Below are positions 15,285-63,302 of a DNA stretch of 64,000 bases, one piece after another (position 1 is the first letter of the stretch; every line of letters begins with the position of its first letter). The translations under genes were made by a program, and so were the position numbers. Source of the DNA: Ectothiorhodospiraceae bacterium 2226 (lineage in GTDB: Bacteria; Pseudomonadota; Gammaproteobacteria; GCA-013348725); the NCBI GenBank assembly GCA_013348725.1, contig CP054689.1:1724501-1788500 (forward strand). Reading direction: 5' to 3'. The notes under the pieces were generated by a model. The model was not told the DNA's origin, ran no database searches, and worked only from the letters and a program-made list of their open reading frames with translations.

Positions 15285-18200
15285 CCTTCCTCCCGACTTT
15301 GGGAATGGTGAGTTCGAAACAGGTGTTGTGGTGCTGGGTGTCGACCCGCAAGTCGCCACGGTGCGCCTTCATGATAGACCGCGCGAGGCTGAGGCCGAGC
15401 CCGGTGCCTTCCTCCTTGGTCGTGAAGAACGGCGTCATCACCATCGCGGCGATCTTGCCGGAAATGCCACCGCCGCTGTCGATCACCCGCACCACGGCCG
15501 TATCATCCTCCTCCTCGATCTCGATTCGAATCCACTTGTCTTCGAGGTTGCGTACCGCGTCGATGGCGTTGTTGATCAGGTTCACGAACACCTGGCTGAG
15601 CTGCGTCGGATGGCAACGGACCGGCAGCGCCTCGCGAGCGGGGTCGAACTCGAGACGCACACCCTTGTTGCGCAGGTGGAAGTCGCACATGGTGATCACG
15701 TCGCGTATCAGTGCAATCACGTCGCAGGGGCGCGTGTCGTGGTTGCTGTCCACGCGTGCAAAAGAGCGTAGCCCCACCACAATCTCCGAAATGCGCGCCA
15801 CGGTGTCCTCGATAGCATCGATGGCCTTATCCGTGTATTCCGGGTGCAGCTTTCCCTCCACCCGCGTCTTGCGGATAAGGTCGACGTAATTCTGGATTGT
15901 GTTGAGCGGGGTGTTGAGCTCGTGCGCGATGCCCGCCGCCATCTCGCCCAACGAGGCGAGGCGAGCGGTCTTCAACACCTCTTCCTGCTTGCTACGGATT
16001 TGCGTCTCCTGCGCGCGACGCTCGGTCGACTCCACGATCACCAGGATGAGGTGGCGTGCGGGCCGGCGCCCGCGCGGATGGTGTGTGGCGCGGATCTCGA
16101 AGTAACGGGTCTGCTCGCCACGTGCCTCGACCTCGATGGGACCGCCGCCCGCACGGGCGAGGCGGGTGGTCAATGCGTCCGCTTGAGTATCGCCAAAGGC
16201 CGCCGCCAATACATCACGCAGCGAGGCGCCGTGCAGGTCGACCTCGGGTGCATTGAAGGTGCTGCCAAAGGCGTGCGAGATGAAATCGGCGCGGTAGCCC
16301 TGACGGCCGCGGCCGCGATTGAAGATCAGGATGGTCTGGTTGGAGGCGGCGATGACGTCGTGGAACAGCTTAAGCGTGCGGTGCGCCTCGACGCGTTCGG
16401 TGATGTCCACGGCGATGGTGCAGAGGGCGTGGGAGGTATCGTGCTCACCCTCGACCAGCGGGAAACGCGTGGCGAGCTTCATGCGCGCACCGCCGGGATA
16501 AGGGACGCGCTCCTCGTAGCTGCGGGCGCGCAGTGCGCTCAGGACTTCGAGGTCGCGTTTGTGCATCAGGTCCGCGGTATGGGTGTCGAACAAATCGCGG
16601 TCGGTGTTGCCGATAATCTGTTCCTTGTCGCGGCCCAAGGCGCGCGCGAAGTGGTCGTTCACGTAGGTGTAACGGCCTGAGGCGTCCTTCACCGTCAGCA
16701 CCGCGGGCACGTTCTCGAAAATGGTCGCGAGCGTGCGCTCCGAGGCCTCCGCGCGGCGCAGGCTCGCGGCGATTGCGGTGTAGTCCATGAACGAGGCGAC
16801 CACGCCGTCCACGCGCCCGGTGTGGCCCCGAATAGGGCGGCAGGTGACCTCCAGGTCGTACTGTTCACTCTGCACCGCCACCGTCTGCGGCCGGTCGTCG
16901 TGCAGGCTGCGCTCTATCGCCGCCAGGGCGTCACGCAACGAGTCCTTGTTCGGAATCAGGTGGACGCTCTTGCCCTTGTGGTGCGGATGGACCTCGAGCA
17001 GCTTCTCGGCGCCGCGGTTGAAGTCGACCAGGTTGAGGTTCTTGTCCACCATCAGAATCGGGTACTGCGTGGCGTCCTGCACCGCGTGCAGGTAGTTGTT
17101 CATGTCGAGCAGTTCGTTCGACTTGATGTTGAGCTCTTCGTTGAGCGTGGTCAGTTCCTCGTTGGTCGACTGTAGTTCTTCATTGGAGGTCTCGAGTTCC
17201 TCGTTGGTCGATTGCAGTTCCTCGTTGGCCGAGTGCAGTTCCTCGTTCAGGGCCTGCAACTCTTCGTTGGCGGTCTCCTGCTCCTGGATGACCGTCTGCA
17301 GGTGCTCGCGGGTGGCGGCCAGCTCCCGCTCGAGTTCCTCGATCTCACCGGTTCCGGCGGGCTCGCCAGCCGAGGTGGGGGCATGCTGCGGTGTGCTCGG
17401 CAGGGCGTCGAAGCTCAGGACCAGCCGCCCTGCATCCTGTATCTGCACCGGGTAGACGCGGGGCTGCACGATGCGCCGACCGTCCGCGCACGCCATCTCG
17501 AGATGCGTGCCGAGCGCCATGCGCCTGCTGCGCTTGGCGCGGTGCAGCAGCGTAACGATCTTGTTCTTGATGTCGTCGGCCAGCAGCCTCTCCACCGAAT
17601 GGGTGACCGTGCCCTCGGGAAAGCGCAAGTATTGGCGCGCGTTGCCATAGATCTCCCGGACCATCAGGTCTTCGTCGAGCACCAGCGAATCGGGCGCGAA
17701 GGCGCGGATCAGCGCGAGGAGCTGCTCCTGGGTGGCGCGCGCCTGGTGGAAGCGCTCGGCGGCGCGGCGCGCGCTGCGCTCGAGCGGCAGGCTGGAAAAG
17801 GAGATCTCGGGATCGACCGGGCGATCACTACGCTGATAGAGCTTGTTGTCCACCGGGCGGAAGTAGGCCTTGGTGCTGCCGAGCGACTCCGCCTTGCCGA
17901 GGAACAGCAGCCCGTTCGGACTGAGCGCGTAGTGGAACAGCTTGATGATGCGTTCCTGCAGGGCGCCGCTGAAGTAGATGAACACGTTGCGGCAGGAGAT
18001 CAGGTCCATGCGTAGAAACGGCGGGTCGCGGGTCAGGTCGTGGCGCGAGAACACCACCCGTTCACGCACCAGGCGCTTGATCTGGTAGACGCCGTCCAGC
18101 TTCTCGAAGTAGCGCGTCACCAGCGCCTTGGGCATGTTCTCCAGCGAGGTCTCGGAGTAGATGCCACGCCGCGCCGCGCTCATCGCCTCCTCGTCGATGT

Positions 18201-48726: not shown

Positions 48727-48804
48727 CCGATGGCCGGCCTCGTCGGCCGGCCGCCCAGAACACCAACAAGAACCCACGACCAGAACAATAACAGGGACAT
48801 CGCT

Positions 48805-51798
48805 ATGACCTCGCTCCGCTACTGCCGCGACGGCGCACCGCCGGCCTACCAGGCGCCCGCTATCCTTTCGCTCCTGCGGCAGAGCTACCTGAGTCGAACG
48901 CTGGCCGCGCTGGTGATCGTCGCGTTCACGATGCTCATCACGCAGCCGGTTGCGGCCGCCTTCCAGGGCGCAGCACAAACCCCGCCCGCGCCGCAACCGG
49001 TGCCCCCGAGCAAGGCGGACCAACTCTCGCGGGCGCTGCAGAAAGCGCGCGACGTCTCCGCCGTGGCCGTCGACCGCGCGGCGCGCGGGCAGGCCATCGC
49101 CGAGGAGCGCCGCGAACTCGCTACGCTGCGTCGCCAGCTGGTGGACCTGCGCGCCGAGGCCATGGCCGACTTTGCCTCCGTCGGCGCTATGCTGCAGGCG
49201 CGCGAGGTCCCGGAGGTCATCCACCAGCGTCAACGCGACGCGGTGGCCGCGTTCAATGCCGAAATGGACGGCCTGCTCGAAGAACTCGCCGAGGTGGAGG
49301 CCGCGGATACCGATGAGGGCGTGCGGCGCGGCCTCGAGCGCGCCAAGCAACGCCTGACCGAGCGTCAGCTCGAGCGCAGTCAGCACCCTTTCAATCCCAA
49401 CGAGCTGCCCCACGGCCCGCAGCTCCCGAATCCGGACAATCGCCCCAAGCTCGAGGAGCACGAGTTCCGCGCCGCCGGCCTCTACAGCAACCCCCTGGTC
49501 CAGCTCGCGGCGCTGGAGAACTACCGCTTCGACACCCTGCCAGGCGCCGCCGATCCCGCCTACCTGGGCGAGACGGTCGAGGTGCCGCTCACGCCCGCCA
49601 TCCGCGCCAAGGCCGAAGAACTCGGTTACGAGCCGGTCAACATCTACCACTGGGTGCGCAATCACGTCGAATGGGTCCCATCCTGGGGCGCGGTGCAGGA
49701 CGCCGACCTCACGCTGTCGGCGCAGCGCGGCAACGCCATGGATACCGCCAGCCTGCTCATTGCCCTGCTGCGCGCCTCCGGCGTGCCGGCGCGCTATGTT
49801 CACGGCACCATCGAGGTCCCCGAAGCGCGCTTCCGCAATTGGGCCGGCGGCTTCGAGAGCATCGAAGCCGCCATGAACTACGCGTCCTCCGGCGGTATCC
49901 CCACCACTGGCATCACTCAGGGCGGGCGCGTGGTCACAGTGCGTATGGAACACGTCTGGGCTGAGGCGGCAGTGGACTTCCTCCCCTCCCGTGCCGCCAT
50001 CATGCGCGAGGCCGACACCTGGCTCGCGCTCGATGCCAGCTACAAACAGTACGAATACCTGGAAGGGCTCGATGTGGCCGCCATCGCCAACCTCGACGGC
50101 GAGGCCTTGGCCGCGAGCTTCATGGCCAGCGGTGCCGTAGACGAGGCGGCCGGCTGGGTGCAGGGGCTGGACGCCTCCATTATCGAGGCCGCGCAGCAAG
50201 ACGCCCGCCAGGCGCTGGAAGCCCACATCGAGCAAATGACCGATCCCACGGTGGGCGACGTCATCGGCGGCCGTAAGGTCGTCATCCGCGAGGCACCCGT
50301 GCTGCCCTCCGCCATGCCCTTTGCGCGCATCGTCGAAGGCGCCCGCTACGCTGCGCTACCGGCCGCCCTGCAGCCCACCATCACCTTCGGTCTGGGTGCC
50401 GACATCCTCGGCACGCCACTCGCCCAGGCCCAGTTCCCCTGGGCGCAGCTCAACAACCGCAAGGTGACCCTCTCCTTCCGTCCCGCCACGCAGGCCGATG
50501 AGGATGCGCTGCACGCGCTCCTGCCCGAAGGCGAAATCACCGACATCAGCCAGCTGCCCAGCAGCATCCCCGCCTACCTCATCAAGGTCGTGCCCGAGCT
50601 AAAGGTCGAGGGCGAGACGGAGCTTGCGGGCGCAGCCATGAAGCTGGGCGAAGAACTGGCCTTCCGGTACAGCGTGCGCGATCCGGTCCACGGCATGCGC
50701 CATTATCCAAATAAAGTGTTAGCCGGTTCGTACATTGCTGTAGGCGTGATAGGCGGCAATGTGGCCCCAAGCAGTCTGCGGGATGCTCAGAGTGAGCTGG
50801 AATCTACCCGCACGAAGCTTGGGTCAGGAGAGGATGGGCAACTCGAAGGGTTGACCCGCGAAGACTTGCTGGGCGAGATGTTTCATGCTGGGTTATTAGG
50901 CTATTTCGCGCAGTATAATGCTGTAGGACGTCTGATTGCCCAGAGTCGAGGGGGTCATTTCCAGCTCGTCAATTCGGCAGGAAGCTATGGTTACGTGCCA
51001 ACCGTCACGTACTTTTTTGGTGTCCCTCGTGCTGTTATCCCTGGTGGCGTAGAAATGGACCTCGACCGGGTGGCGCATGTGTCGAATGTGGATCAACAGC
51101 CCCCCTCCATGTGGGCTGCCTTCAACTTTCATGTTGGCGCCGTAGCTTCGGCACTTGAGCATGTACTGCCCGAACAGATGTTCAAAAGGAACGGCGGCAC
51201 CGGCGGGGCGGTTTCTGCAGTGAAGGCACTGCAGCTTGCCGCCGCACAGGGCCAGCGAATCTACCACATCACCAAGGCAAATCAGGGCATCATGTTGCCG
51301 GATGTCCGGCAAAGCCAAGTGGTAATGAATGACATTTCTGCGGCGCTGGCGGTAGGTAAAGAGGTTGTTGTGCACGCGAGCCCGATCAGTGTGCCAGGCT
51401 GGGTTGGTGCGGGCTATGTGATTGTCGATCCAAGTACGGGCGCCGGTGCGTGGAAGATCGGGGGAGGCGCAAATGGGGGCTTTCTCTCGGAAGATGCGGC
51501 AGGAATACTTGGGTTTATGGGGTTTGCCCTCGGGATGATAGGCGCTGGATTTGGCGCGCCCATCCTCGTGTTTCTCGCAGCTGCTATCGCTATGATCATA
51601 GCCGTTAACCTAATCCTCGAATATTTAACCGTAGATCATAACTGCTCGGGTCTTGATTACCTTATCGGTCTCGCAGTGCTGGCCGCGTTTGCTGGTATAT
51701 TTGCGTCGGGTATCGGGGCGATAATTGTCATGTATGTCGGTCTAATCGCCGGAGGGGCAGCCTTAGCAACCGCTAAATCTAGCGTTTGTGCAAACTAG
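48805..51798 (+). CDS. Secreted pseudo-transglutaminase protein with variable hydrophobic C-terminal tail (full-length copy)
   Basis: A 997-residue protein: signal/anchor helix (~32-52), coiled coil (~65-170), transglutaminase-like core (~270-420) in which His383 and Asp410 are kept but the usual Cys position reads RGNAMD (Ala311). A conserved module (~345-889) ends with GAWKIGGGA; the last ~108 residues form about four Gly-rich membrane helices with no match to the other tails. From ~50,700 the DNA turns AT-richer and departs from the cassettes, which are near-identical upstream. Similar transglutaminase modules precede variable ends in RHS/polymorphic-toxin proteins (recalled family knowledge). 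Start at 48805; an earlier frame lacks a signal at the right place. Confidence 0.75.
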   Translation: MTSLRYCRDGAPPAYQAPAILSLLRQSYLSRTLAALVIVAFTMLITQPVAAAFQGAAQTPPAPQPVPPSKADQLSRALQKARDVSAVAVDRAARGQAIAEERRELATLRRQLVDLRAEAMADFASVGAMLQAREVPEVIHQRQRDAVAAFNAEMDGLLEELAEVEAADTDEGVRRGLERAKQRLTERQLERSQHPFNPNELPHGPQLPNPDNRPKLEEHEFRAAGLYSNPLVQLAALENYRFDTLPGAADPAYLGETVEVPLTPAIRAKAEELGYEPVNIYHWVRNHVEWVPSWGAVQDADLTLSAQRGNAMDTASLLIALLRASGVPARYVHGTIEVPEARFRNWAGGFESIEAAMNYASSGGIPTTGITQGGRVVTVRMEHVWAEAAVDFLPSRAAIMREADTWLALDASYKQYEYLEGLDVAAIANLDGEALAASFMASGAVDEAAGWVQGLDASIIEAAQQDARQALEAHIEQMTDPTVGDVIGGRKVVIREAPVLPSAMPFARIVEGARYAALPAALQPTITFGLGADILGTPLAQAQFPWAQLNNRKVTLSFRPATQADEDALHALLPEGEITDISQLPSSIPAYLIKVVPELKVEGETELAGAAMKLGEELAFRYSVRDPVHGMRHYPNKVLAGSYIAVGVIGGNVAPSSLRDAQSELESTRTKLGSGEDGQLEGLTREDLLGEMFHAGLLGYFAQYNAVGRLIAQSRGGHFQLVNSAGSYGYVPTVTYFFGVPRAVIPGGVEMDLDRVAHVSNVDQQPPSMWAAFNFHVGAVASALEHVLPEQMFKRNGGTGGAVSAVKALQLAAAQGQRIYHITKANQGIMLPDVRQSQVVMNDISAALAVGKEVVVHASPISVPGWVGAGYVIVDPSTGAGAWKIGGGANGGFLSEDAAGILGFMGFALGMIGAGFGAPILVFLAAAIAMIIAVNLILEYLTVDHNCSGLDYLIGLAVLAAFAGIFASGIGAIIVMYVGLIAGGAALATAKSSVCAN

Positions 51799-51809
51799 AG
51801 GAGACATTC

Positions 51810-52049
51810 TTGCAATCTGGGTTAGCCAACTTTCTGCTGTTTCTTACCGACGCGGCTATTGTAGTCTTCGCGGGCATGGCGATCTTTGGGGCGCTGAAAG
51901 GAAGAGCGTACGCGTTAGGGCGTTGGTACACCGCCGCGGAGGGGAGATCTGCATATTGGCAAGTGATTATCGGCTATGTTTTTCTCGTGATCGTGTTGGC
52001 GTATATTCGGTTCGCTGTTTATCCCGAGGCACTTTACCCCCATCTGTAA
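51810..52049 (+). CDS. Small membrane protein following the full-length variable tail (candidate partner 1)
   Basis: A 79-residue protein with two to three helices (LANFLLFLTDAAIVVFAGMAIFG, WQVIIGYVFLVIVLAYIRFAV). A TTG start at 51810 is proposed because GAGGAG lies seven bases upstream; an earlier TTG (51786) would overlap the upstream stop. It sits 11 bases after the variable tail, the position of immunity genes in toxin modules. No sequence relation to the other partners is visible. Partner function is inference. Confidence 0.5.
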   Translation: MQSGLANFLLFLTDAAIVVFAGMAIFGALKGRAYALGRWYTAAEGRSAYWQVIIGYVFLVIVLAYIRFAVYPEALYPHL

Positions 52050-52128
52050 TAATTGATGCTTGGCTATAGGTAACGTGAGGAAAAAGGGGTGGAAAAAGGG
52101 GGCGGTGCGTTCAACCGGTCGATGCAAC

Positions 52129-52310
52129 AGCCCGCGTAGGTTGGGCTGACGAAAGGAAGCCCAACGTTGTTCCCGATCGCGCCGGATCGGACTACTCAGT
52201 CTGATCAGTTTTTTGCATCGCTAAAGGCGACGAGCACGCGTACGAGGGGCATGCACATCGAGAGCTTGAGGGGTGTTGGGCTTCCTTCGTCAGCCCAACC
52301 TACGTGAACT
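52129..52310. repeat. Palindromic interspersed repeat, copy 1 (full length, 182 bp)
   Basis: Each end is a hairpin: GTTGGGCT...AGCCCAAC on the left (52141-52165) and GTTGGGCT...AGCCCAAC on the right (52275-52299), together forming ~29-bp terminal inverted repeats around a ~110-bp centre that codes for nothing. Right terminus CTACGTGAACT (52300-52310) supplies the GTG start of the next frame. Translating the ends gives MLGFLRQPNL-type peptides, not genes. Confidence 0.8.
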
Positions 52311-54316
52311 GGGCCGGCGGCTTCGAGAGCATCGAGGCGGCGATGGACTACGCCTCCTCGGGCGGGATCCCCGCCACCAGCCTCACCCAGGGCGGCAGCG
52401 TCGTGATGGTGCGCATGGAGCACGTCTGGGTCGAGGCGGCGGTGGACTTTCTGCCCTCGCGCGCTGCCATCATGCGCGAAGCCGACACCTGGCTCGCGCT
52501 CGATGCCAGCTACAAGCAGTACGAATACCTGGAAGGGCTCGATGTGGCCGCCATCGCCAACCTCGACGGCGAGGCCTTGGCCGCGAGCTTCATGGCCAGC
52601 GGTGCCGTAGACGAGGCGGCCGGCTGGGTGCAGGGGCTGGACGCCTCCATTATCGAGGCCGCGCAGGAAGACGCCCGTCAGGCGCTGGAAGCCCATATCG
52701 AGCAAATGACCGACCCGACCGTGGGCGACGTCATTGGCGGTCGCAAGGTCATCATTCGCGAGGCGCCCGTGCTGCCCTCCGCCATGCCCTATGACCGCGT
52801 CGTCGATGGCGCCCGCTACGCCGCGCTGCCGGCCGCCCTGCAGCCCACCATCGCCTTCGGTCTCGGCGCCGACATCCTCGGCACGCCACTCGCCCAGGCC
52901 CAGTTCCCCTGGGCGCAACTCAACAACCGCAAGGTAACGCTCTCCTTCCGTCCCGCCACGCAGGCCGATGAGGATGCGCTGCACGCGCTCCTGCCCGAAG
53001 GCGAGATCACCGACATCAGCCAGCTGCCGAGCAGCATCCCCGCCTACCTCATCAAGGTCGTGCCCGAGCTAAAGGTCGAGGGCGAGACGGTGCTGGCAGG
53101 CGCAGCGATGAACCTGGGAGAGGAGCTGGCGTTCAGGTACAGCGTGCGCGACCCGATCCACGGTCTGCGCCATTATCCGAACAAGGTAGTGGCGGGTTCC
53201 TACCTCGCGGTGGCGGTGGTCGGCGGCGGGGTGGCAACGGGCAGCCTACGAGAGGCGCAGGCCCGCCTCGAAGCCACCGGCGGCGCGTTGGCCTCGACGG
53301 ACGATACATTGCTCGCCGGGCTCACTCGCGAAGACCTACTGGGGGACATGTTCTACGCAGGACTTCTGGGGTACTTCGCGCAGTACCAAGCCCTGGGACA
53401 CCTCTCCGCCCTAAGCCAGAGCGCGCACTTCCAACTCGCAACCTCGGCGGGGACCTATGGCTACGTTCCCCAGGTGAGCTATTTCTTCGGCCTGCCCCGC
53501 GCAATCACACCGGGGGGAGTCGAGATGGACCTGGACAGGGTGGCACACACCTCCAGCGTTGACGGTCAGGGCGCCGATGCCTGGCGCCAGTTCAACTTCC
53601 AGCTCGGCGCGCTGTCCTCAGCCCTGGAGCACGCCGTGCCCGAGCAGATGTTCGTGACGCCCGAGAACCCCGGCGAGGCGGTCTCGGCGGTCAAGGCTCT
53701 GCAGCTCGCCGCCCAAGGGGGTCAACGGGTTTATCATGTCAATCAGGCCAATCAGGCCGAGGCTCTCACGAACATCCGCCAGAACAGTCTGACCATGAGC
53801 GAAATCCGCGCAGCGTTGGCGGTGGGTAAGGAGGTGATCGTGCACACCGACCCAATCAGCGTGCCGGGGTGGAGCGGCGCGGGGTATGTGATCATTGATG
53901 CGGAGACGGGAGCGGGGGCTTGGAAGATTGGGGGTGGAGCAAAGGGTAGCTTCTTCGAGGATGTGGGGGTGGGGCTGTGGATATTGCTGCAAGCCCTAAT
54001 CTCCAATGCGGAGAATGCTGCTTTACGCGCTCTCGGCGCGCTCAGCCAAGCAATAGAATTCATAGAGAACGTATACTCAGCGATCACTAGTTGCCCATCG
54101 AATGCCTTGCCGCTCGTCGTTTTCGCGATCGTTGCATCTACTTTGATTTCAATTGCGTTCGTGGCGGCGGCCGCCGCGGTGGGTGGTGTGTTTGCGGCTA
54201 TCGCTGCGAGCATATTCGTTTCGTCAATATTTCATTGGGCGATTGGGAGCATGTTGAACATATGTCGTCTGGTCGCAGTGAGGAGCGAAAATGATTCGAC
54301 CGCTGCTACTGCGTAG
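52304..54316 (+). CDS. Cassette 1: 5'-truncated pseudo-transglutaminase module with its own hydrophobic tail
   Basis: An open frame of 670 codons that begins at the repeat terminus (GTG AAC TGG) and matches the full-length protein from its residue 346 on, so signal peptide, coiled coil and first half of the transglutaminase-like domain are missing. It runs to GAWKIGGGAKG, then ends in ~122 unrelated residues with two or three membrane helices (PLVVFAIVASTLISIAFVAAAAAVGG). No promoter or good ribosome site is seen, so it is probably silent as such. Residues up to the motif are ~98% identical to cassette 2. Confidence 0.7.
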   Translation: MNWAGGFESIEAAMDYASSGGIPATSLTQGGSVVMVRMEHVWVEAAVDFLPSRAAIMREADTWLALDASYKQYEYLEGLDVAAIANLDGEALAASFMASGAVDEAAGWVQGLDASIIEAAQEDARQALEAHIEQMTDPTVGDVIGGRKVIIREAPVLPSAMPYDRVVDGARYAALPAALQPTIAFGLGADILGTPLAQAQFPWAQLNNRKVTLSFRPATQADEDALHALLPEGEITDISQLPSSIPAYLIKVVPELKVEGETVLAGAAMNLGEELAFRYSVRDPIHGLRHYPNKVVAGSYLAVAVVGGGVATGSLREAQARLEATGGALASTDDTLLAGLTREDLLGDMFYAGLLGYFAQYQALGHLSALSQSAHFQLATSAGTYGYVPQVSYFFGLPRAITPGGVEMDLDRVAHTSSVDGQGADAWRQFNFQLGALSSALEHAVPEQMFVTPENPGEAVSAVKALQLAAQGGQRVYHVNQANQAEALTNIRQNSLTMSEIRAALAVGKEVIVHTDPISVPGWSGAGYVIIDAETGAGAWKIGGGAKGSFFEDVGVGLWILLQALISNAENAALRALGALSQAIEFIENVYSAITSCPSNALPLVVFAIVASTLISIAFVAAAAAVGGVFAAIAASIFVSSIFHWAIGSMLNICRLVAVRSENDSTAATA

Positions 54317-54536
54317 TATTCTCTGGATCCTGGCAGGATTGCTTTTCATCTGGCCACTGGCGTTGATGATGGCGGGGGGGCAAACTGTGGCGTTCGTGAT
54401 CGCTTCCATCGGTTGGGGGCTATTCATTCCAGCGCTTGATCACGTGGATATGAAGCCGATTCGAACGCCGCGACAGCGCTACGTAATCAGCATATCGCTC
54501 CTCATGCTTAGCGTTCTTCTTGTGCGCCCCGGCTAG
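54291..54536 (+). CDS. Small membrane protein paired with cassette 1 (candidate partner 2)
   Basis: An 81-residue protein with three helices (LLRSILWILAGLLFIWPLALMM, TVAFVIASIGWGLFIPALDH, YVISISLLMLSVLLV). The ATG lies 26 bases inside the cassette 1 frame and has GAGGAG just upstream, so it can be translated independently. Unrelated to the other partners in sequence but equal in position and type. Confidence 0.55.
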   Translation: MIRPLLLRSILWILAGLLFIWPLALMMAGGQTVAFVIASIGWGLFIPALDHVDMKPIRTPRQRYVISISLLMLSVLLVRPG

Positions 54537-54602
54537 AACCCCGCATACATGGCGATACAAAGGGGGTGGACGTACTTCTGTGGAATCTCTGAATACCTCC
54601 CG

Positions 54603-54745
54603 CGCCTTCGGCAAATCGTTGCATCGCGCGTTCATCCCAAGAAACCATGCCCTGAGACAGCAGCATCCGGTAGCTTCGGATAGCGCCCTGCATGGATAAA
54701 TGAACGCTGACTCATAAGAGAGAAGATGCCGAATGGCTCGCCTTC
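54603..54745. repeat. Diverged second repeat (copy a)
   Basis: Shares with 63473-63625 the blocks AATCGTTGCATCGC, CCCTGAG-CAGCATC and GAGAGAAGATGCCGAATGG in the same order. The minus strand of both can be read as a similar short peptide (GAIRSYRMLLSQGMV / GAIRIYLMMLAQGMV), perhaps a gene remnant. No intact gene. Confidence 0.4.
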
Positions 54746-54825
54746 GGCTTGGAAGACAGTCATGAGCACAGAGTCGTCCACGCTTATGCGGCCCGGAGCA
54801 CGCATGCCCTGGCGCTGCAGCGGGA

Positions 54826-54990
54826 GCCCGCGTAGATGGGCTGAAGAAAGGAAGCCCAACGTTGTTCCCTGTCGCGCCGGATCGGATTACTCGGTCTGAT
54901 CAACTATCTGCATCGCTCGACGAGCACGCGTACGAGGGGCATTCACATCAAGAGCTTGAGGGGCGTGGGGCTTCCTTCGTCAGCCCAACC
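54826..54990. repeat. Palindromic interspersed repeat, copy 2 (degenerate)
   Basis: Same centre as copy 1 (GCACGCGTACGAGGGGCAT present) but the outer left hairpin is mutated and the right end reads CCCAACCCAAG instead of CCTACGTGAACT. It stands back to back with copy 3. Confidence 0.65.
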
Positions 54991-55099
54991 CAAGCCCGCG
55001 TAGGTTGATGTGATGGTCTCCTCCCCTTTCTAACCGGCGTCATGTGCGCCACGATGGAGATGTTAAGCAACCATCGAAACGAAAGAAGAGGAGACCGCC

Positions 55100-56111
55100 A
55101 TGAAGATTACAACGGTCGGGCTGGACCTGGCAAAGAGCGTGTTCCATGTGGTGTGTTTTGATGCCTCACACCACGAGGTTGGCAAGCGGATGCTGCGTCG
55201 AAGCGAGGTCATGAAGTACTTTTCCCACCTGGAGCCCTGCCGGGTGGCGATGGAGGCCTGCGCCGGCGCTCATTATTGGGGACGTGAGCTGCAGCGGTTG
55301 GGTCACCGGGTAAAGCTGATTGCGCCGCAATTCGTGAAGCCGTACGTGCAGGGCAACAAGAATGACTACAACGATGCCCGGGCGATAGCGGAGGCCGCGA
55401 CCCGGCCGGCGATGCGCGCAGTGAGCATCAAGAGCGTCGAGCAACAGGACATCCAGGCGCTACATCGCCTGCGGGCGCAGCGCATCAAGGAACGCACTGC
55501 CCTGTGCAACCAGCTGCGGGCGTTGGTGGCGGAGTATGGACTGGTGATGAACAAGGGTGGCCTCGGTACGACGTGCTGTGCCGCAGTTGCTGGAAGACGC
55601 TGAAAACGGCCTGAGCACCCTGTTTCGCGGCCTCCTGAAGCGGGGTTATGACCAGCTTGTCGAGTTAGAGGGCCACATTGACTTCTACACTGGTCAGATT
55701 GAGCAAACCAGCCGTCAGGACGAGCGTTGCAGGCGCTTGCAGGCCGTGCCGGGATTCGGACCGATCGTGGCCAGCGTCTTTGTCGGCCAGGTGGGCGATG
55801 GCAAGGCTTTCCGGCGGGGGCGCGACGTGTCAGCGGCGCTGGGTCTGGTGCCGCGCCAGCACAGCAGCGGCGGCAAGGAGGTATTGCTGGGGATCAGCAA
55901 GAAGGGCGACGGCTATTTACGCAGCCTGCTAGTCCACGGCGCGCGCAGTGTGGTGCTGCACGCCAAGGCCAAGGACGATAAATTGAGTCAATGGATTAAC
56001 CGACTGTGCGAACGACGGGGCATCAACAAAACCGCCGTCGCGCTGGCCAACAAACTGGCCCGTATGGGCTGGGCGCTGTTACGGAACGACACCAAATATT
56101 GCCCCGCCTGA
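55100..56111 (+). pseudogene. IS110-family transposase, frameshifted (copy A)
   Basis: N-terminal DEDD/RuvC-like part (55100-55603) with GLDLAKSVFHVV and KNDYNDARAIAEA; C-terminal transposase_20 part in the +1 frame (55557-56111) with LQAVPGFGPIVAS and LGLVPRQHSSGG, including the region that carries the conserved serine of the family. The break lies near 55555: one base too many, or a +1 shift, since a single frame would read on as ASVRRAVPQLLEDAENG. No obvious slippery run. The identical break occurs in copy B. Confidence 0.8.
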
Positions 56112-56379
56112 GCGGATACGATAACGATACTGAGTTTGAGGTAACCTGCCGACGATTGCGAAGATAACGTGAAGTGATGACATCACAGGTAAGACCGGCG
56201 TATTGAAAACCTGCTATGCCCATAGGCTGATTCAAGCCGATAGGTTGATGAGGACGATACGCGCAGCTCACATCAAGGCCAGAGAAGACATCTCCTCATC
56301 AACAGGCCGGATATATGGAAGCAATCCTGTCACTGTCTGAAACACACGGTATCTTGCAAGCGGGGAGGAGACCATATAT
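56112..56379 (+). ncRNA. Candidate bridge RNA region of IS copy A
   Basis: IS1111-group elements carry their bridge RNA in the noncoding right end. This 268-bp end contains an 11-bp stem, GTTGATGAGGA (56244-56254) with TCCTCATCAAC (56293-56303), and TAGGTTGATG (56241-56250), which equals the ten bases spanning the left insertion junction (55001-55010). Exact RNA ends unknown. Confidence 0.45.
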
Positions 56380-56547
56380 GGGCTGACGAAAGGAAGCCCA
56401 ACGTTGTTCCCGATCGCGCCGGATCGGACTACTCGGTCTGATCAGCTTTTTGCATCGCTAAAGGCGACGAGCACGCGTACGAGGGGCATGCACATCGAGA
56501 GCTTGAGGGGTGTTGGGCTTCCTTCGTCAGCCCAACCTACGTGAACT
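56380..56547. repeat. Palindromic interspersed repeat, copy 3, right part
   Basis: Rest of copy 3 after the IS insertion; the left part is AGCCCGCGTAGGTT at 54993-55006. It is nearly identical to copy 1 and ends with CTACGTGAACT at the start of cassette 2. Confidence 0.75.
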
Positions 56548-58475
56548 GGGCCGGCGGCTTCGAGAGCATCGAGGCGGCGATGGACTACGCCTCCTCGGGC
56601 GGGATCCCCGCCACCAGCCTCACCCAGGGCGGCAGCGTCGTGATGGTGCGCATGGAGCACGTCTGGGTCGAGGCGGCGGTGGATTTTCTGCCCTCGCGCG
56701 CTGCCATCATGCGCGAGGCCGACACCTGGCTCGCGCTGGATGCGAGCTACAAGCAGTACGAATACCTGGAAGGGCTCGATGTGGCCGCCATCGCCAACCT
56801 CGACGGCGAGGCCTTGGCCGCGAGCTTCATGGCCAGCGGTGCCGTAGACGAGGCGGCCGGCTGGGTGCAGGGGCTGGACGCCTCCATTATCGAGGCCGCG
56901 CAGGAAGACGCCCGTCAGGCGCTGGAAGCCCATATCGAGCAAATGACCGACCCGACCGTGGGCGACGTCATTGGCGGTCGCAAGGTCATCATTCGCGAGG
57001 CGCCCGTGCTGCCCTCCGCCATGCCCTATGACCGCGTCGTCGATGGCGCCCGCTACGCCGCGCTGCCGGCCGCCCTGCAGCCCACCATCGCCTTCGGTCT
57101 CGGCGCCGACATCCTCGGCACGCCACTCGCCCAGGCCCAGTTCCCCTGGGCGCAACTCAACAACCGCAAGGTAACGCTCTCCTTCCGTCCCGCCACGCAG
57201 GCCGATGAGGATGCCCTGCACGCACTTCTGCCCGAAGGCGACATCACCGACATCAGCCAGCTGCCGAGCAGCATTCCCGCCTACCTCATCAAGGTCGTGC
57301 CCGAGCTAAAGGTCGAGGGCGAGACCGTTCTTGCAGGCGCAGCGATGAACCTCGGCGAGGAGCTGGCGTTCAGGTACAGCGTGCGCGACCCGATCCACGG
57401 CCTGCGCCATTACCCGAACAAGGTCGTCGCGGGCTCCTACCTGGCGGTGGCGGTGGTCGGCGGCGGGGTGGCAACGGGCAGTCTACAAGAGGTGCAGGCC
57501 CGCCTCGAAGCCACCGGCGGCGCGTTGGCCTCGACGGACGATACATTGCTCGCCGGGCTCACTCGCGAAGACCTACTGGGGGACATGTTCTACGCAGGAC
57601 TTCTGGGGTACTTCGCGCAGTACCAAGCCCTGGGACGCCTCTCCGCCCTAAGCCAGAGCGCGCACTTCCAACTCGCAACCTCGGCGGGGACCTATGGCTA
57701 CGTTCCCCAGGTGAGCTATTTCTTCGGCCTGCCCCGCGCAATCACACCGGGGGGAGTCGAGATGGACCTGGACAGGGTGGCACACTCCTCCAGTGTTGAC
57801 GTCCAGGGCGCCGACGCATGGCGTCAGTTCAACTTCCAGCTCGGTGCACTGTCGTCAGCGCTGGAACACGCCGTGCCCGAGCAAATGTTCGTGACGCCCG
57901 AGAACCCCGGCGAGGCGGTCTCGGCGGTCAAGGCTCTGCAGATCGCCGCCCAAGGGGGTCAACGGGTTTATCATGTCAATCAGGCCAATCAGGCCGAGGC
58001 TCTCACGAACATCCGCCAGAACAGTCTGACCATGAGCGAAATCCGCGCAGCGTTGGCGGTGGGTAAGGAGGTGATCGTGCACACCGACCCAATCAGCGTC
58101 CCGGGGTGGAGCGGCGCGGGGTATGTGATCTTTGATGCGGAGACGGGAGCGGGGGCTTGGAAGCTTGGGGGTGGGGCGAACGGGGGAGTGCTGGTCGGCG
58201 GTGTCGCGATACTCGGCATTGGGCTCGTGGCGCTGATGGGGGCGGCCGCCGGCGTTCTTATATCGCCGATGCTGATTGCTTTAACAATTGCGTTGGCGCT
58301 GCATATCATCCTCCTAGAGATCGCATTTAACCCAGATCTGAAATGGACCGACGTGAAGTCTCAGGTATTGGCTATCACGGCCATTGTTGCTACGTTCTTT
58401 TTCGCACTGCCAGCCACCGTAAAGACGCTGGTGGGTTTGATAATAGCCGAGGTTTTGACGTTATGGTCACTGTGA
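56541..58475 (+). CDS. Cassette 2: 5'-truncated pseudo-transglutaminase module with a different tail
   Basis: An open frame of 644 codons starting at the same residue as cassette 1 (equivalent to residue 346 of the full-length protein) and ~98% identical to it up to GAWKLGGGANG. The last ~96 residues are unrelated and hydrophobic (VAILGIGLVALMGAAAGVLISPMLIALTIALALHIILLE), with about three or four helices. No promoter or ribosome site is visible. Lies between the two inverted IS copies. Confidence 0.7.
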   Translation: MNWAGGFESIEAAMDYASSGGIPATSLTQGGSVVMVRMEHVWVEAAVDFLPSRAAIMREADTWLALDASYKQYEYLEGLDVAAIANLDGEALAASFMASGAVDEAAGWVQGLDASIIEAAQEDARQALEAHIEQMTDPTVGDVIGGRKVIIREAPVLPSAMPYDRVVDGARYAALPAALQPTIAFGLGADILGTPLAQAQFPWAQLNNRKVTLSFRPATQADEDALHALLPEGDITDISQLPSSIPAYLIKVVPELKVEGETVLAGAAMNLGEELAFRYSVRDPIHGLRHYPNKVVAGSYLAVAVVGGGVATGSLQEVQARLEATGGALASTDDTLLAGLTREDLLGDMFYAGLLGYFAQYQALGRLSALSQSAHFQLATSAGTYGYVPQVSYFFGLPRAITPGGVEMDLDRVAHSSSVDVQGADAWRQFNFQLGALSSALEHAVPEQMFVTPENPGEAVSAVKALQIAAQGGQRVYHVNQANQAEALTNIRQNSLTMSEIRAALAVGKEVIVHTDPISVPGWSGAGYVIFDAETGAGAWKLGGGANGGVLVGGVAILGIGLVALMGAAAGVLISPMLIALTIALALHIILLEIAFNPDLKWTDVKSQVLAITAIVATFFFALPATVKTLVGLIIAEVLTLWSL

Positions 58476-58720
58476 TCGTAAAAGTCATTCCCCACGTCTT
58501 GGTTCTACTGCTTGCGATTATCGCGTTGAACAACGCAGATGATTTTTCTGTGCCCGCGGCCGCAGTCGCGGGCTTGTTGATAGCCTGTATAATGGGGGCG
58601 GCGAAGGGAATGTCATCGTTCGTGACATACTCGTGGCCCTGGGTGTTAAGTTTGTTTTACTTTCTCGCAATCATTGGGTTCCTCGCTCTGCAGTTATTGA
58701 CGCTAATGATTTATTCCTGA
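58463..58720 (+). CDS. Small membrane protein paired with cassette 2 (candidate partner 3)
   Basis: An 85-residue protein with three helices (IPHVLVLLLAIIALNN, AAAVAGLLIACIMGAA, WPWVLSLFYFLAIIGFLALQLLTLMI). ATG at 58463 overlaps the last codons of cassette 2 by 13 bases and has GAGG upstream. AT-richer than neighbouring DNA. No relation in sequence to the other partners. Confidence 0.55.
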   Translation: MVTVIVKVIPHVLVLLLAIIALNNADDFSVPAAAVAGLLIACIMGAAKGMSSFVTYSWPWVLSLFYFLAIIGFLALQLLTLMIYS

Positions 58721-58745
58721 ATTAAAAGAGCCATAATAAGCACGT

Positions 58746-58789
58746 GTAGGTTGGGGGTGACGAAGGAATCCCAACGTTGTTCCAGATCA
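58746..58789. repeat. Palindromic interspersed repeat, copy 4 (left 44 bp only)
   Basis: Left hairpin of the repeat (GTAGGTTGGGGGTGACGAAG, then CCCAACGTTGTTCC), cut off by the end of the IS3 remnant at 58790. Confidence 0.65.
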
Positions 58790-59509
58790 TGAGCTTCCCC
58801 CAATAAAACGGACGGTTTAATTGCTCGCGTACCGGGCTTCGTATTCTACCGGCGTCAGATACCTTAGCGAAGCGTGCCGGCGTTGCCGGTTGTAGAATAC
58901 CTCGATGTACTCGAAGAGGCTTTGTTTGGCTTCTGCCCGCGTGTTGTAGTCCTCGTGGTGCACCAGTTCGTTCTTCAGGGAGCCGAAGAAGCTTTCGGCC
59001 ACGGCGTTGTCGAGACATTCGCCCTTGCGGCTCATGCTGCAGCGCAGACCGTTCTCATGTAACTGCTGCTGGTACGCTGTCGAGGCATAGGTGCTGCCCT
59101 GGTCGGAGTGGACGATGAGGCTGTCGACCTTCTTTCGGCGCCACAGCGCCATCGTCAGGGCCTGCTGCACCAGTTCGGCGTCGTTGCGCTCGCCCATGGC
59201 CCAGCCGATCACCTGACGGGAGAACAGGTCCAGGAGGACAGCGAGGTAGAGCCAGCCCTCGCGGCTGGGGATGAAGGTGGTATCAGACACCCAGGCAGTG
59301 TCCGGCTGGCCGACCGTGAATTGTCGCTGTAGCAGGTCTGACGCGGCCTTGAGGGTGTACTTCGAATCCGTGGTGATGACGAACTTGCGGGCCATTCGGG
59401 ATTGGATGTCCGCCGCCCTCATCAGGCGCGCCATGGCGACCAGGTCCGCGTAGATCTTCGGCGAGCCATAGAGTTGGCGGGGACGCTGATGATAGTGGGC
59501 AATCTTCTC
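58790..59509 (-). mobile_element. IS3-family insertion sequence remnant
   Basis: The right terminus begins TGAGCTTCCCCCAATAAA at 58790, the typical end of IS3-group elements (minus-strand orientation). The left end, orfA and the 5' part of orfB are missing; the sequence is cut at ~59510 by repeat copy 5. Confidence 0.75.
58817..59509 (-). pseudogene. IS3-family transposase orfB fragment
   Basis: An rve-type DDE integrase core: Asp in WVSDTTFI, Asp in VHSDQGSTYAS, Glu in AVAESFFGSLKNE, ending RHASLRYLTPVEYEARYA. The 5' end is lost at the repeat boundary, and about a dozen residues seem deleted between YGSPKIYADLV and ARLMRAADIQ. All three catalytic residues survive, but the gene cannot be functional. 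Confidence 0.8.
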
Positions 59510-59644
59510 AGCCCGCGTAGGTTGGGCTGACGAAGGAAGCCCAACGTTGTCCCTGTCTGCACCACTAAAGGAGAGGAGCACGCGTACGAGGGGTATGTAT
59601 TCACATCGACAGCTTGAGGGGTGTTGGGCTTCCTTCGTCAGCCC
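59510..59644. repeat. Palindromic interspersed repeat, copy 5, left part (short variant)
   Basis: AGCCCGCGTAGGTTGGGC at the left, then a centre ~33 bp shorter than copy 1, and the right hairpin cut by IS copy B at GGGC. The last seven bases (AACCTAC, 61018-61024) plus GTGAACT lie on the other side of the IS. Confidence 0.7.
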
Positions 59645-59912
59645 ATATATGGTCTCCTCCCCGCTTGCAAGATACCGTGTGTTTCAGACAGTGACAGGAT
59701 TGCTTCCATATATCCGGCCTGTTGATGAGGAGATGTCTTCTCTGGCCTTGATGTGAGCTGCGCGTATCGTCCTCATCAACCTATCGGCTTGAATCAGCCT
59801 ATGGGCATAGCAGGTTTTCAATACGCCGGTCTTACCTGTGATGTCATCACTTCACGTTATCTTCGCAATCGTCGGCAGGTTACCTCAAACTCAGTATCGT
59901 TATCGTATCCGC
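59645..59912 (-). ncRNA. Candidate bridge RNA region of IS copy B
   Basis: Reverse complement of the copy A right end, with the same 11-bp stem and junction-like decamer. RNA ends unknown. Confidence 0.4.
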
Positions 59913-60924
59913 TCAGGCGGGGCAATATTTGGTGTCGTTCCGTAACAGCGCCCAGCCCATACGGGCCAGTTTGTTGGCCAGCGCGACGGCGGTTTTGTTG
60001 ATGCCCCGTCGTTCGCACAGTCGGTTAATCCATTGACTCAATTTATCGTCCTTGGCCTTGGCGTGCAGCACCACACTGCGCGCGCCGTGGACTAGCAGGC
60101 TGCGTAAATAGCCGTCGCCCTTCTTGCTGATCCCCAGCAATACCTCCTTGCCGCCGCTGCTGTGCTGGCGCGGCACCAGACCCAGCGCCGCTGACACGTC
60201 GCGCCCCCGCCGGAAAGCCTTGCCATCGCCCACCTGGCCGACAAAGACGCTGGCCACGATCGGTCCGAATCCCGGCACGGCCTGCAAGCGCCTGCAACGC
60301 TCGTCCTGACGGCTGGTTTGCTCAATCTGACCAGTGTAGAAGTCAATGTGGCCCTCTAACTCGACAAGCTGGTCATAACCCCGCTTCAGGAGGCCGCGAA
60401 ACAGGGTGCTCAGGCCGTTTTCAGCGTCTTCCAGCAACTGCGGCACAGCACGTCGTACCGAGGCCACCCTTGTTCATCACCAGTCCATACTCCGCCACCA
60501 ACGCCCGCAGCTGGTTGCACAGGGCAGTGCGTTCCTTGATGCGCTGCGCCCGCAGGCGATGTAGCGCCTGGATGTCCTGTTGCTCGACGCTCTTGATGCT
60601 CACTGCGCGCATCGCCGGCCGGGTCGCGGCCTCCGCTATCGCCCGGGCATCGTTGTAGTCATTCTTGTTGCCCTGCACGTACGGCTTCACGAATTGCGGC
60701 GCAATCAGCTTTACCCGGTGACCCAACCGCTGCAGCTCACGTCCCCAATAATGAGCGCCGGCGCAGGCCTCCATCGCCACCCGGCAGGGCTCCAGGTGGG
60801 AAAAGTACTTCATGACCTCGCTTCGACGCAGCATCCGCTTGCCAACCTCGTGGTGTGAGGCATCAAAACACACCACATGGAACACGCTCTTTGCCAGGTC
60901 CAGCCCGACCGTTGTAATCTTCAT
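59913..60924 (-). pseudogene. IS110-family transposase, frameshifted (copy B)
   Basis: Same as copy A: N-terminal part 60421-60924, C-terminal part 59913-60467 in the +1 frame, with the break at the same base. The sharing means the shift arose before duplication, or that it is bypassed by frameshifting. Confidence 0.8.
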
Positions 60925-61098
60925 GGCGGTCTCCTCTTCTTTCGTTTCGATGGTTGCTTAACATCTCCATCGTGGCGCACATGACGCCGGTTAGAAAGGG
61001 GAGGAGACCATCACATCAACCTACGTGAACTGCCCGAAGGCGACATCACCGACATCAGTCAGCTGCCGAGCAGCATCCCCGCCTACCTCATCAAGGTC

Positions 61099-62160
61099 GT
61101 GCCCGAGCTAAAGGTCGAGGGCGAGACGGTGCTCGCAGGTGCAGCCATGAACCTGGGCGAGGAGCTGGCGTTCAGGTACAGCGTGCGGGAGCCGATCCAT
61201 GGTCTGCGCCACTATCCCAATAAGGTCGTGTCGGGCTCCTACCTCGCGGTGGCGGTGGTCGGCGGCGGGGTGGCAACGGGCAGCCTACGAGAGGCGCAGG
61301 CCCGCCTCGAAGCCACCGGCGGCGCGTTGGCCTCGACGGACGATACATTGCTCGCCGGGCTCACTCGCGAAGACCTACTGGGGGACATGTTCTACGCAGG
61401 ACTACGTGAACTGTCCTCAGCCTTGGAACACGCCGTGCCCGAGCAGATGTTTGTGACGCCCGAGAACCCAGGCGAGGCGGTGTCGGCTGTCAAGGCTCTG
61501 CAAAAGGCTGCCGCGCAAGGCCAGCGCATCTACCACGTCACGCCCGCGAATCAGGATACCGCTCTTGCTGACCTGGGCCACAGCGCCCAGACCCTCAACG
61601 ACATCCGCAGTGCGCTGGCGATGGGGCGGGAAGTGATTGTGCATACGGATCCCATCGAAGTATCCGGCTGGCACGGCTCGGGCTACGTGATCTTCGACCC
61701 GCAGGTCGGCGACGGCGCCTGGCGGATTGAAGGCGGTGCGTCCGGGTCGTGGATATATGCGTTAATCGGCGCGTTCTTCTCCGCAGTCTTAGATGGTCTG
61801 CTCGCGAAATACCGTTCGCCAACCTCGATGTTCGGCCCACGTGATGAGATCACGTTCTCTAGAGTGGTTAACTTCGCAGCCAAGGCTTTGACGGTGCTGG
61901 GATTTGCCTACGCCACCTTTTCAACTGTTGCGAGTGATGAGTTAGGAACGGATCAGAAGGTAATAACGATATTGGCGAATCTCGGAGCTGCAATAGGCAT
62001 AATGAAAGCGACCTCTTGGATAATGGCCTCCGCTCTCGTGTTCCCAGTGTCGGTTCTAGTGGCCGCGGTTGTCGCAGTTGCTATCGCCGCAATTACGCTT
62101 GCCATTTTGACGGTTCTTGTCGCTAGCAAAGGGAACCGTGATCGTTACGCGTTCGGGTAG
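61099..62160 (+). CDS. Cassette 3: further truncated module with a third tail and an internal deletion
   Basis: The frame is open from the repeat terminus at 61021 and matches the full-length protein from its residue ~573 (LPEGDITDISQLPSS); the first possible start is the GTG at 61099. After GDMFYAGL, 82 residues present in cassettes 1 and 2 are replaced by RE, encoded by a 12-base copy of the repeat terminus (CTACGTGAACTG, 61402-61413). After GAWRIEGGASG comes a third hydrophobic tail of ~137 residues (VINFAAKAL-like, PVSVLVAAVVAVAIAAITLAILTVLV). Not expected to be expressed alone. Confidence 0.65.
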   Translation: MPELKVEGETVLAGAAMNLGEELAFRYSVREPIHGLRHYPNKVVSGSYLAVAVVGGGVATGSLREAQARLEATGGALASTDDTLLAGLTREDLLGDMFYAGLRELSSALEHAVPEQMFVTPENPGEAVSAVKALQKAAAQGQRIYHVTPANQDTALADLGHSAQTLNDIRSALAMGREVIVHTDPIEVSGWHGSGYVIFDPQVGDGAWRIEGGASGSWIYALIGAFFSAVLDGLLAKYRSPTSMFGPRDEITFSRVVNFAAKALTVLGFAYATFSTVASDELGTDQKVITILANLGAAIGIMKATSWIMASALVFPVSVLVAAVVAVAIAAITLAILTVLVASKGNRDRYAFG

Positions 62161-62170
62161 CAGGTATAGC

Positions 62171-62440
62171 ATGCGCTTTTTCATCGCGATAGTATTCTTC
62201 CCCGCCGGCTTGTTAGTGGGCGCTGGCGTGTATGCCGCCGTAATCTGGCTCGGTCTGGTTGGCGCACACAACGCGCTGTATATCGCCGTCGCGTTGGTGG
62301 CCGCCTTCGTCACCAACATGCTCGAAGCGCGATTTCTGTGGGGTACACGATTGCCTGATGTTGACGACCTCAGCCTCTGTCCAGTGTCAATCGGTTGGTT
62401 CACAGGTTTCTCGTTACTTATGATGGTTGCTAACCATTGA
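62171..62440 (+). CDS. Small membrane protein paired with cassette 3 (candidate partner 4)
   Basis: An 89-residue protein with three helices (FFIAIVFFPAGLLVGAGVYAAVIWLGLVG, LYIAVALVAAFVTNML, SIGWFTGFSLLMMVA). ATG at 62171, ten bases after the cassette 3 stop, preceded by AGCAGG; longer upstream frames overlap the tail without a ribosome site. Unrelated to other partners in sequence. Confidence 0.55.
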   Translation: MRFFIAIVFFPAGLLVGAGVYAAVIWLGLVGAHNALYIAVALVAAFVTNMLEARFLWGTRLPDVDDLSLCPVSIGWFTGFSLLMMVANH

Positions 62441-62498
62441 TGGTTCACAACGGATGGGCGCTACATCGAGAGCTTGAGGGCGTCGGGCTTCCTTCCTC

Positions 62499-62680
62499 AG
62501 CCCGCGTAGGTTGGGCTGACGAAAGGAAGCCCAACGTTGTTCCCGATCGCGGCGGATCGAACTACTAGGTATGATCAGCGTTTTGCATCGCTAAAGGCGA
62601 CGAGCACGCGTACGAGGGGCATTCACATCGAGAGATTGAGGGGTGTTGGGCTTCCTTCGGCAGCCCAACCTACGTGAACT
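62499..62680. repeat. Palindromic interspersed repeat, copy 6 (full length, 182 bp)
   Basis: Same ends and centre as copy 1, ending CTACGTGAACT at 62670-62680. A partial right half of another copy (62464-62498) is joined directly to its left end. Confidence 0.8.
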
Positions 62681-62747
62681 GACGAGTGAGACGGCGCAGG
62701 CAAGGATCCGCCAGGCGGCGGAGGGCTGGAAGGTACGCAGTGACTCT

Positions 62748-63302
62748 ATGATGACACGCTATTGGTCGTTGGTGCTTCTTTGGTTCGCAATGTACGTCGC
62801 TCCGTACCTAGCCGTACTGATGGCGTTCATCGCCGTTTATGAGTGGCATGCCCTCGAGCGCGCGCTCGACGAGATGTTCTGGTCCATCCTTTTGTTTTTC
62901 GTGTTTCTCATCGCTACCGTCATCATCGCTCTTTCGATGAAGAGACTCACGCTGTCTCCGGCCACCTTGGTCGCAATGCTCGAGCAACACGGCTTCCGAG
63001 TGACTACCACAGGACGGCGATTGCAAGGACGCTCAAGTAGAGGCGTCGTCGTCGAAGCGCGCTTCGACCATCCAGTGTGGGATGCGTGGCCCATTCCGTC
63101 GCGCCGGATGCTCTCCGGCTCAACGGTCCGTTTTGTAGCGAGGAGACCATCGCCGACTTTCCCCTTCTTGTCCGACCCCAAGGTGGCGATTGAACAAACG
63201 GCGGGCGGATGCGCCGTGACCGTCACTGGAGGGACCTGGGAGGGCGAGGAGTATGCACGGCGCATCGCACACGTGCTCGAAGCATTGGATGAGCCCATGT
63301 AG
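62748..63302 (+). CDS. Membrane-anchored protein of unknown function, orphan between two repeats
   Basis: A 184-residue protein with two N-terminal helices (WSLVLLWFAMYVAPYLAVLMAFIAVYEW, MFWSILLFFVFLIATVIIALSM) and a ~110-residue soluble domain (LSPATLVAMLEQHGFRVTTTGRRL, FDHPVWDAWPIPSRRM, GGCAVTVTGGTWEGEEYARRIAHVLEAL). The frame is open back to the repeat end at 62681; the ATG pair at 62748/62751 is the likely start. Its stop TAG is formed by the first bases of the next repeat, so the original C-terminus may have been longer. No family recognised; the position suggests an orphan partner gene. Confidence 0.5.
   Translation: MMTRYWSLVLLWFAMYVAPYLAVLMAFIAVYEWHALERALDEMFWSILLFFVFLIATVIIALSMKRLTLSPATLVAMLEQHGFRVTTTGRRLQGRSSRGVVVEARFDHPVWDAWPIPSRRMLSGSTVRFVARRPSPTFPFLSDPKVAIEQTAGGCAVTVTGGTWEGEEYARRIAHVLEALDEPM

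What the first reader, a model, noticed from the sequence alone, without database searches (positions are those of the whole stretch)
55000..61024. Two IS1111-type elements inserted at the identical base of the repeat
Copies A and B both split GTAGGTT / GGGCTGAC. For copy A the flanks reassemble to exactly the 168 bp of an intact repeat core, so insertion is precise and without duplication. IS110-family elements are known to target REP palindromes and integron attC sites using a bridge RNA; this repeat appears to be the programmed target here.
Basis: partly seen in the sequence, partly recalled or inferred. Interest (0 to 1): 0.6.

Follow-up and report, generated by a model that had tools for sequence, protein, structure and literature searches.

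The report
RNA-guided IS1111-type insertions into REPs
A jumping gene of a known RNA-guided kind has landed three times in this bacterium, each time at exactly the same base of a short palindromic repeat, and the RNA that the jumping gene appears to encode carries the matching address; this is a well-supported new case of a known behaviour.

Summary
Confirmed, extended and mechanistically supported; a new member of a known kind. Copies A and B (1371 bp between core dinucleotides, identical, opposite orientation) split the same site. A whole-genome search found one further copy (C), and it splits that site too: 3 of 3. The target is a REP palindrome (GTAG head plus hairpin), not the 168-bp repeat, which is two inverted REPs; A rejoins to 168 bp (2 substitutions against an intact copy), B to 135 bp, and C lies in a lone REP. 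RAYT genes sit among the REPs. Junctions fit a shared TG core. The downstream non-coding region holds a predicted seekRNA/bridge RNA with target and donor guides in IS1111 order. In 29 elements a blind scan of 246 alignment windows picks exactly the two predicted guide columns as co-varying with the flanking targets (z 11.9 and 8.7); the RNA structure has two-sided changes in 13 of 28 pairs. A and B carry a shared 2-nt deletion in tnp; only C is intact. REP targeting by IS110/IS1111 elements and its RNA guidance are published (ISPa11, IS621). Modestly new: REP-reading guides recur in separate transposase lineages in one register.

The parts
55008..56378 (+). IS copy A, between the two TG core dinucleotides (55006-55007 and 56379-56380)
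59646..61016 (-). IS copy B, identical to A over 1371 bases, opposite orientation; cores (CA on +) at 59644-59645 and 61017-61018
55100..55603 (+). copy A transposase, N-terminal piece (DEDD_Tnp_IS110), 167 aa; frame broken by a 2-nt deletion at 55558 relative to copy C
55557..56111 (+). copy A transposase, C-terminal piece (Transposase_20), 184 aa
60421..60924 (-). copy B transposase, N-terminal piece, same break
59913..60467 (-). copy B transposase, C-terminal piece
55013..55026 (+). copy A left sub-terminal inverted repeat ATGGTCTCCTCCCC
56362..56375 (+). copy A right sub-terminal inverted repeat GGGGAGGAGACCAT
56151..56324 (+). copy A predicted seekRNA/bridge RNA region downstream of tnp (RNA ends not mapped)
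   Evidence: RNA itself not observed
56214..56222 (+). copy A right-target guide CTATGCCCA (GCCCA pairs with target top strand TGGGC)
56240..56247 (+). copy A left-target guide ATAGGTTG (TAGGTTG equals target top strand)
56268..56275 (+). copy A right-donor guide TCACATCA, complement of the left end TGATGTGA (55006-55013)
   Evidence: donor guides not tested statistically
56311..56317 (+). copy A left-donor guide ATATATG, equal to the right end 56374-56380
   Evidence: donor guides not tested statistically
59802..59810 (-). copy B right-target guide
59777..59784 (-). copy B left-target guide
55000..55006 (+). REP occupied by A, left fragment GTAGGTT
56380..56402 (+). REP occupied by A, right fragment GGGCTGACGAAAGGAAGCCCAAC
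61018..61024 (-). REP occupied by B, left fragment (GTAGGTT on the - strand)
59623..59644 (-). REP occupied by B, right fragment
52136..52303 (.). intact 168-bp inverted REP pair, the empty-site reference for A

Best explanation
A and B are two copies of an IS1111-group insertion sequence that was steered into REP palindromes by its own guide RNA. The RNA is read from the non-coding region downstream of tnp. One internal loop pairs with the REP (GCCCA with the top strand right of the cut, TAGGTTG with the bottom strand left of it); a second region pairs with the joined ends of the circular element (TCACATCA and ATATATG). The DEDD/serine recombinase exchanges strands at the shared TG dinucleotide, so the element always enters after base 6 of the REP (GTAGGT|TG|GGC), in one orientation, without a target duplication beyond the core. 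Shown here: the common site in 3 of 3 copies, the guide sequences, their covariation with targets across relatives, a conserved RNA fold. Inferred: RNA expression, circle formation, catalysis. A and B share a frameshift, so their last moves were probably driven by transposase supplied in trans by copy C or another intact copy, or the deletion was spread by gene conversion.
For: Three of three genomic copies at the same REP base. IS110 RNA-guided transposase family, sTIRs, 3' non-coding region. Guides: 14 hand-aligned elements give LTG 71 of 84 and RTG 68 of 98 pairs against 36.2 and 41.8 in shuffles, 0 of 100,000 shuffles as high. Automated scan with 29 elements: of 246 windows the best for the left target is exactly the LTG column (137 of 174 against 55.1, z 11.9; next 2.7) and the best for the right target exactly the RTG column (107 of 174 against 47.9, z 8.7; the next, 4.6, is the neighbouring column). 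Guide order (top-strand complement 5' of bottom-strand complement) is the IS1111 order stated in PMC11187229 (section 9 read). Structure: 97.4% of cells paired against 85.7% shuffled and 19-40% when slid; 13 of 28 pairs with changes on both sides; the stem 48-55/124-131 that closes the target loop has 6 of 8.
Against: The window element's own right-target guide matches only 4 of 7 non-core bases, and the left one 5 of 6, so the match is short; the case rests on covariation. The shuffles do not keep relatedness, and some rows are near-copies (Shewanella loci). The single-sequence fold is not more stable than shuffles (z -1.0). No Rfam family matched. RNA, circle and transposition were not observed.
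Confidence: 0.94

Rival explanations
1. The transposase protein itself recognises the REP hairpin (as proposed for IS3-type REP occupants), and the RNA similarity to the target is incidental.
For: All three targets are hairpin-forming REPs with the same sequence; structure and sequence cannot be separated on these three copies alone.
Against: Relatives with 46-66% identical transposases land in sites that do not look like REPs and still match their own guides (for example L028, L061, L072, L076); the target-matching columns are the variable columns of an otherwise conserved RNA.
Confidence: 0.04
2. A and B are not independent insertions but one insertion copied by duplication or recombination of the REP-bounded modules.
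For: A and B are identical over 1371 bases and share the same 2-nt deletion; the surrounding array is full of duplications.
Against: A lies in the left REP of a 168-bp pair and B in the right REP (in + orientation) of a 135-bp pair, in opposite orientation with different outer flanks; C is about 1.15 Mb away at the same REP base.
Confidence: 0.1
3. The repeat end and the IS end only look like a target: the flanking heptamers are part of the IS.
For: Every copy in this genome has the same flanks.
Against: The same REP occurs without the IS at 24 places, an empty 168-bp pair stands at 52136-52303, and the 78% identical element in G337 has the same left but a different right REP half.
Confidence: 0.01

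Closest known systems
ISPa11 (IS1111 group, Pseudomonas aeruginosa)
   Same: IS1111 group; [quoted passage not shown] seekRNA shown experimentally (PMC11187229, sections 6, 9, 13 and passages). Here too the element enters after base 6 of a REP.
   Different: Different REP sequence; the element was not aligned with ISPa11 here.
IS621 / ISCro4 (IS110 group)
   Same: REP targeting and four-guide bridge RNA in IS621 (PMC11208160, passages); the C-terminal domain of our transposase matches the solved ISCro4 and IS621 proteins (E 6.7e-6 and 1.1e-4).
   Different: In the IS110 group the RNA lies upstream of tnp and the guide order is reversed; here it is downstream, in IS1111 order. That ISCro4 is of the IS110 group is recalled, not from a call.
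IS1111 of Coxiella burnetii
   Same: Founder of the group (reference list). Coxiella has a REP listed as GTAGGTTGGGCTGAGCTTGCGAAGCCCAAC (PMC2817692 Table 1, passage), the same head and arms as the REP here.
   Different: Where Coxiella's own IS1111 copies lie was not tested; no Coxiella sequence was fetched.
IS1111 elements that target integron attC (ISKpn4, ISPst6)
   Same: Same RNA-guided mechanism with fixed entry point in a foldable repeat (PMC11187229).
   Different: Target is attC, not REP.

Membership tests
IS1111 group of IS110-family elements | DEDD N-terminal domain and Transposase_20 C-terminal domain with GL-P----S(T)G motif, 330-350 aa | tested here: met
   Copy C 337 aa, NF033542 331 bits (cut-off 140), both Pfam domains; GLVPRQHSSG read in the translation. 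A and B carry the two halves in two frames.
IS1111 group of IS110-family elements | sub-terminal inverted repeats of 7-17 bp | tested here: met
   14 bp exact
IS1111 group of IS110-family elements | long non-coding region downstream of tnp | tested here: met
   92 bp upstream (55008-55099), 267 bp downstream (56112-56378)
IS1111 group of IS110-family elements | seekRNA with top-strand complement 5' of bottom-strand complement, matching the target | tested here: met
   sequence evidence only
IS1111 group of IS110-family elements | no target duplication on insertion | tested here: met
   nothing beyond the 2-bp shared core
IS1111 group of IS110-family elements | circular intermediate; RNA bound by the transposase | not testable with these tools
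   needs the bench
REP / BIME of a RAYT | GT(A/G)G head followed by a GC-rich palindrome | tested here: met
   GTAG + GTTGGGCT..AGCCCAAC; compare PMC2817692
REP / BIME of a RAYT | RAYT gene flanked by two inverted REPs | tested here: met
   Two NF047646 hits in L087; the one at L087:5879-6331 lies between REPs of opposite strand, 2941846(+) and 2942432(-, 3 mismatches). The other RAYT has same-strand REPs nearest to it. Both ORFs start about 28 positions into the profile, so the N-termini may be broken.
REP / BIME of a RAYT | high copy number (usually over 100) | tested here: not met
   24 unoccupied places in three clusters; published cases as low exist (Coxiella 29/38/40)

The most novel reading that the evidence does not exclude
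REP targeting is a recurring specialisation of IS1111 guides: in separate transposase lineages the two target guides have come to read whichever REP family the host carries, always in one register (the six bases GTAGNN of the REP head left of the core). The IS would thus track RAYT-made repeats as renewable harmless landing pads, and copies with a dead transposase gene keep spreading in trans because guide and ends stay intact.
Probability: 0.45. Interest if true: 0.45.

Novelty: new member of a known kind. Interest (0 to 1): 0.32.

Why it matters
It gives a natural demonstration, from sequence alone, that target guides and target sites of IS1111 elements change together (29 elements), adds natural guide-target pairs of use for bridge-RNA tools, and shows REP-like targets with several different heads entered at one register. 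For this genome it explains why the repeats of the array are interrupted where they are.

Tried and rejected
Rejected: the 168-bp repeat as the unit recognised (C sits in a lone REP, B in a 135-bp pair). Rejected: target site duplication (none beyond the 2-bp shared core). Rejected as unlikely: programmed frameshift of A and B (copy C has one 337-aa frame). Led nowhere: Rfam (0 matches at E up to 1); viral contigs (2 pattern matches, 0 relatives); the REP at L055's insertion was not found again in its genome G337 (0 hits of the typed 29-mer; 1 hit of the looser pattern with other arms); G127 and G322 gave 0 hits for the pooled REP pattern, so the targets of L060 and L075 look like REPs but are not shown to be multi-copy. 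The order-level search held only the window's own genome. The plasmid search gave 2,105 records, all under 60% identity, not analysed further.

Choice of rows: searches used 14 elements that I picked as alignable from those with readable ends. One search took all 56 loci L027-L082 automatically: 4 pieces of A/B set aside, 1 duplicate, 22 dropped (incomplete transposase match, no ATGG-type inverted repeat, or N), 29 used. L029, which I had re-anchored by hand, is among the 22.

Full report
What is there. Window 55000-61024 holds two copies of one insertion sequence in opposite orientation. Measured between the core dinucleotides each is 1371 bp, and the two are identical. The transposase is an IS110-family RNA-guided transposase (NF033542) with the DEDD domain and the Transposase_20 domain. 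In A and B it is split into 167 and 184 aa by a 2-nt deletion. The genome (one contig, 2,956,257 bases) has one further copy, C, at 2937979-2939352, which has the two bases and an intact 337-aa frame and otherwise equals A and B.

Same base. A, B and C all read GTAGGT-TG-ATGTGATGGTCTCC...GGAGACCATATA-TG-GGCTGACG. The empty site is GTAGGTTGGGCTGACG. Left flank identity reaches GTAGGTTG and right flank identity starts at TGGGC, so two bases, TG, are shared. That is what a core dinucleotide would leave (PMC11208160, passages).

What the target is. The 168-bp repeat is a pair of inverted palindromes; as single-stranded DNA it folds far better than shuffles (z -6.7). Each palindrome has a GTAG head and a GTTGGGCT...AGCCCAAC hairpin, the build of a REP (compare PMC2817692, passages). 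Two REP-associated tyrosine transposase ORFs (NF047646, 148.6 and 167.6 bits, cut-off 80) lie among REPs near copy C. There are 24 unoccupied places in the genome, counting (20 places, up to 3 mismatches, 0 in the reversed-pattern control; 18 places, 4 of them not), in three clusters near 826 kb, 1776-1788 kb and 2940-2946 kb. Copy C sits in a REP without the 168-bp partner, and B's pair rejoins to 135 bp, so the REP is the target and the longer repeat is not required.

How it works. In IS1111 elements a short RNA from the region downstream of tnp picks the target, with the segment complementary to the top strand lying 5' of the one complementary to the bottom strand (PMC11187229, abstract and sections 6, 9, 13 read). 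The 267 bp downstream of tnp in copy A hold, in that order, CTATGCCCA (56214-56222; GCCCA pairs with TGGGC), ATAGGTTG (56240-56247; TAGGTTG equals the left target), then TCACATCA (56268-56275; complement of the left end) and ATATATG (56311-56317; equal to the right end). The predicted fold puts the first two on the two sides of one loop closed by GCGUAUUG/CGAUACGC.

Test by relatives. Relatives came from 23 loci of the genome collection and from 28 of 369 genomes of the class, the window's own among the 28. With 14 elements aligned by hand, own guides pair with own targets far better than shuffled ones: 71 of 84 against 36.2 and 68 of 98 against 41.8, 0 of 100,000 shuffles as high. A column scan on the same 14 finds those columns first among 264 windows (z 7.0 and 6.2). 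An automated run on the 56 loci L027-L082 used 29 and again finds exactly the two columns first among 246 windows (z 11.9 and 8.7). Weak cases are there too: in L074, L078 and L035 the right guide matches poorly, and L080 has no right flank. Shuffles ignore kinship; the sharp peak at one column is the better control.

RNA structure. On alignment A1 (14 sequences) 97.4% of 389 cells form standard pairs against 85.7% in shuffles and at most 39.6% when slid; 13 of 28 pairs change on both sides, 6 of 8 in the stem that closes the target loop. The structure was derived from the same alignment, which favours it in the slide control. The single-sequence fold of copy A is not unusually stable (z -1.0).

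REP reading in several lineages. In 7 of the 29 elements the left target begins GTAG and the flanks read together as a REP-like palindrome: L030, L031, L050 (= C), L055, L059, L060, L075 (judged by eye). In all 7 the register is the same. The same or a closely similar REP is found again in the host genomes of L030 (G369: 14 places), L059 (G360: 9) and L031 (G370: 4); in G337, G127 and G322 it was not found again. On a tree of the 29 transposases the REP label needs at least 4 changes (2 forced by well supported branches), and holding the 7 as one clade is rejected (p-AU 5.6e-6; the group was named before this tree was built but after the targets were seen). ISPa11 also enters between the sixth and seventh REP bases (PMC1525189, passage). 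Whether the common register has been remarked on in print I did not settle: my searches show REP targeting and RNA guidance as known but were not aimed at the register.

Dead copies. A and B share the deletion, lie at different REPs and point opposite ways. Either a dead copy moved with transposase from C, or gene conversion spread the deletion. Supply of transposase and RNA in trans works in the laboratory for ISEc11 (PMC11187229, passages). I cannot tell the two apart here.

Verdict.

Noticed in passing
window 52300, 56537, 61021, 61402, 62670, 63457: The 12-mer CTACGTGAACTG occurs exactly 6 times in the whole genome, all here and on one strand. At the first four it stands where a displaced 3' piece of the 48730-51798 gene begins, at different points of the parent (49837, 50521, about 51200). 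Five have a REP end just upstream (at 61021 now split off by IS copy B); the one at 61402 has none. It looks like a module-boundary or recombination mark.
   Followed up: partly
window 48730-63302: A transglutaminase-like gene (PF01841) is followed by several N-terminally truncated copies with differing C-terminal tips, separated by REP pairs: the layout of displaced modules in polymorphic-toxin arrays (inference).
   Followed up: partly
L087 (genome 2936000-2950000) 6893-8767 and 10335-11354: The REP cluster around copy C lies in an array of RHS/YD-repeat gene pieces, so two of the three REP clusters sit in repeated, toxin-like arrays.
   Followed up: partly
window 58746-59545: An IS3-family piece (one ORF of 254 aa, NF033516) lies inside another REP pair, about 45 bp into it at one end and abutting a REP at the other.
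   Followed up: no
window 17131-17277: Tandem 21-bp repeats (family D8).
   Followed up: no
L087 4297-4746 and 5879-6331: Two RAYT ORFs that both begin about 28 positions into the family profile; the N-termini may be broken, yet REPs remain.
   Followed up: no
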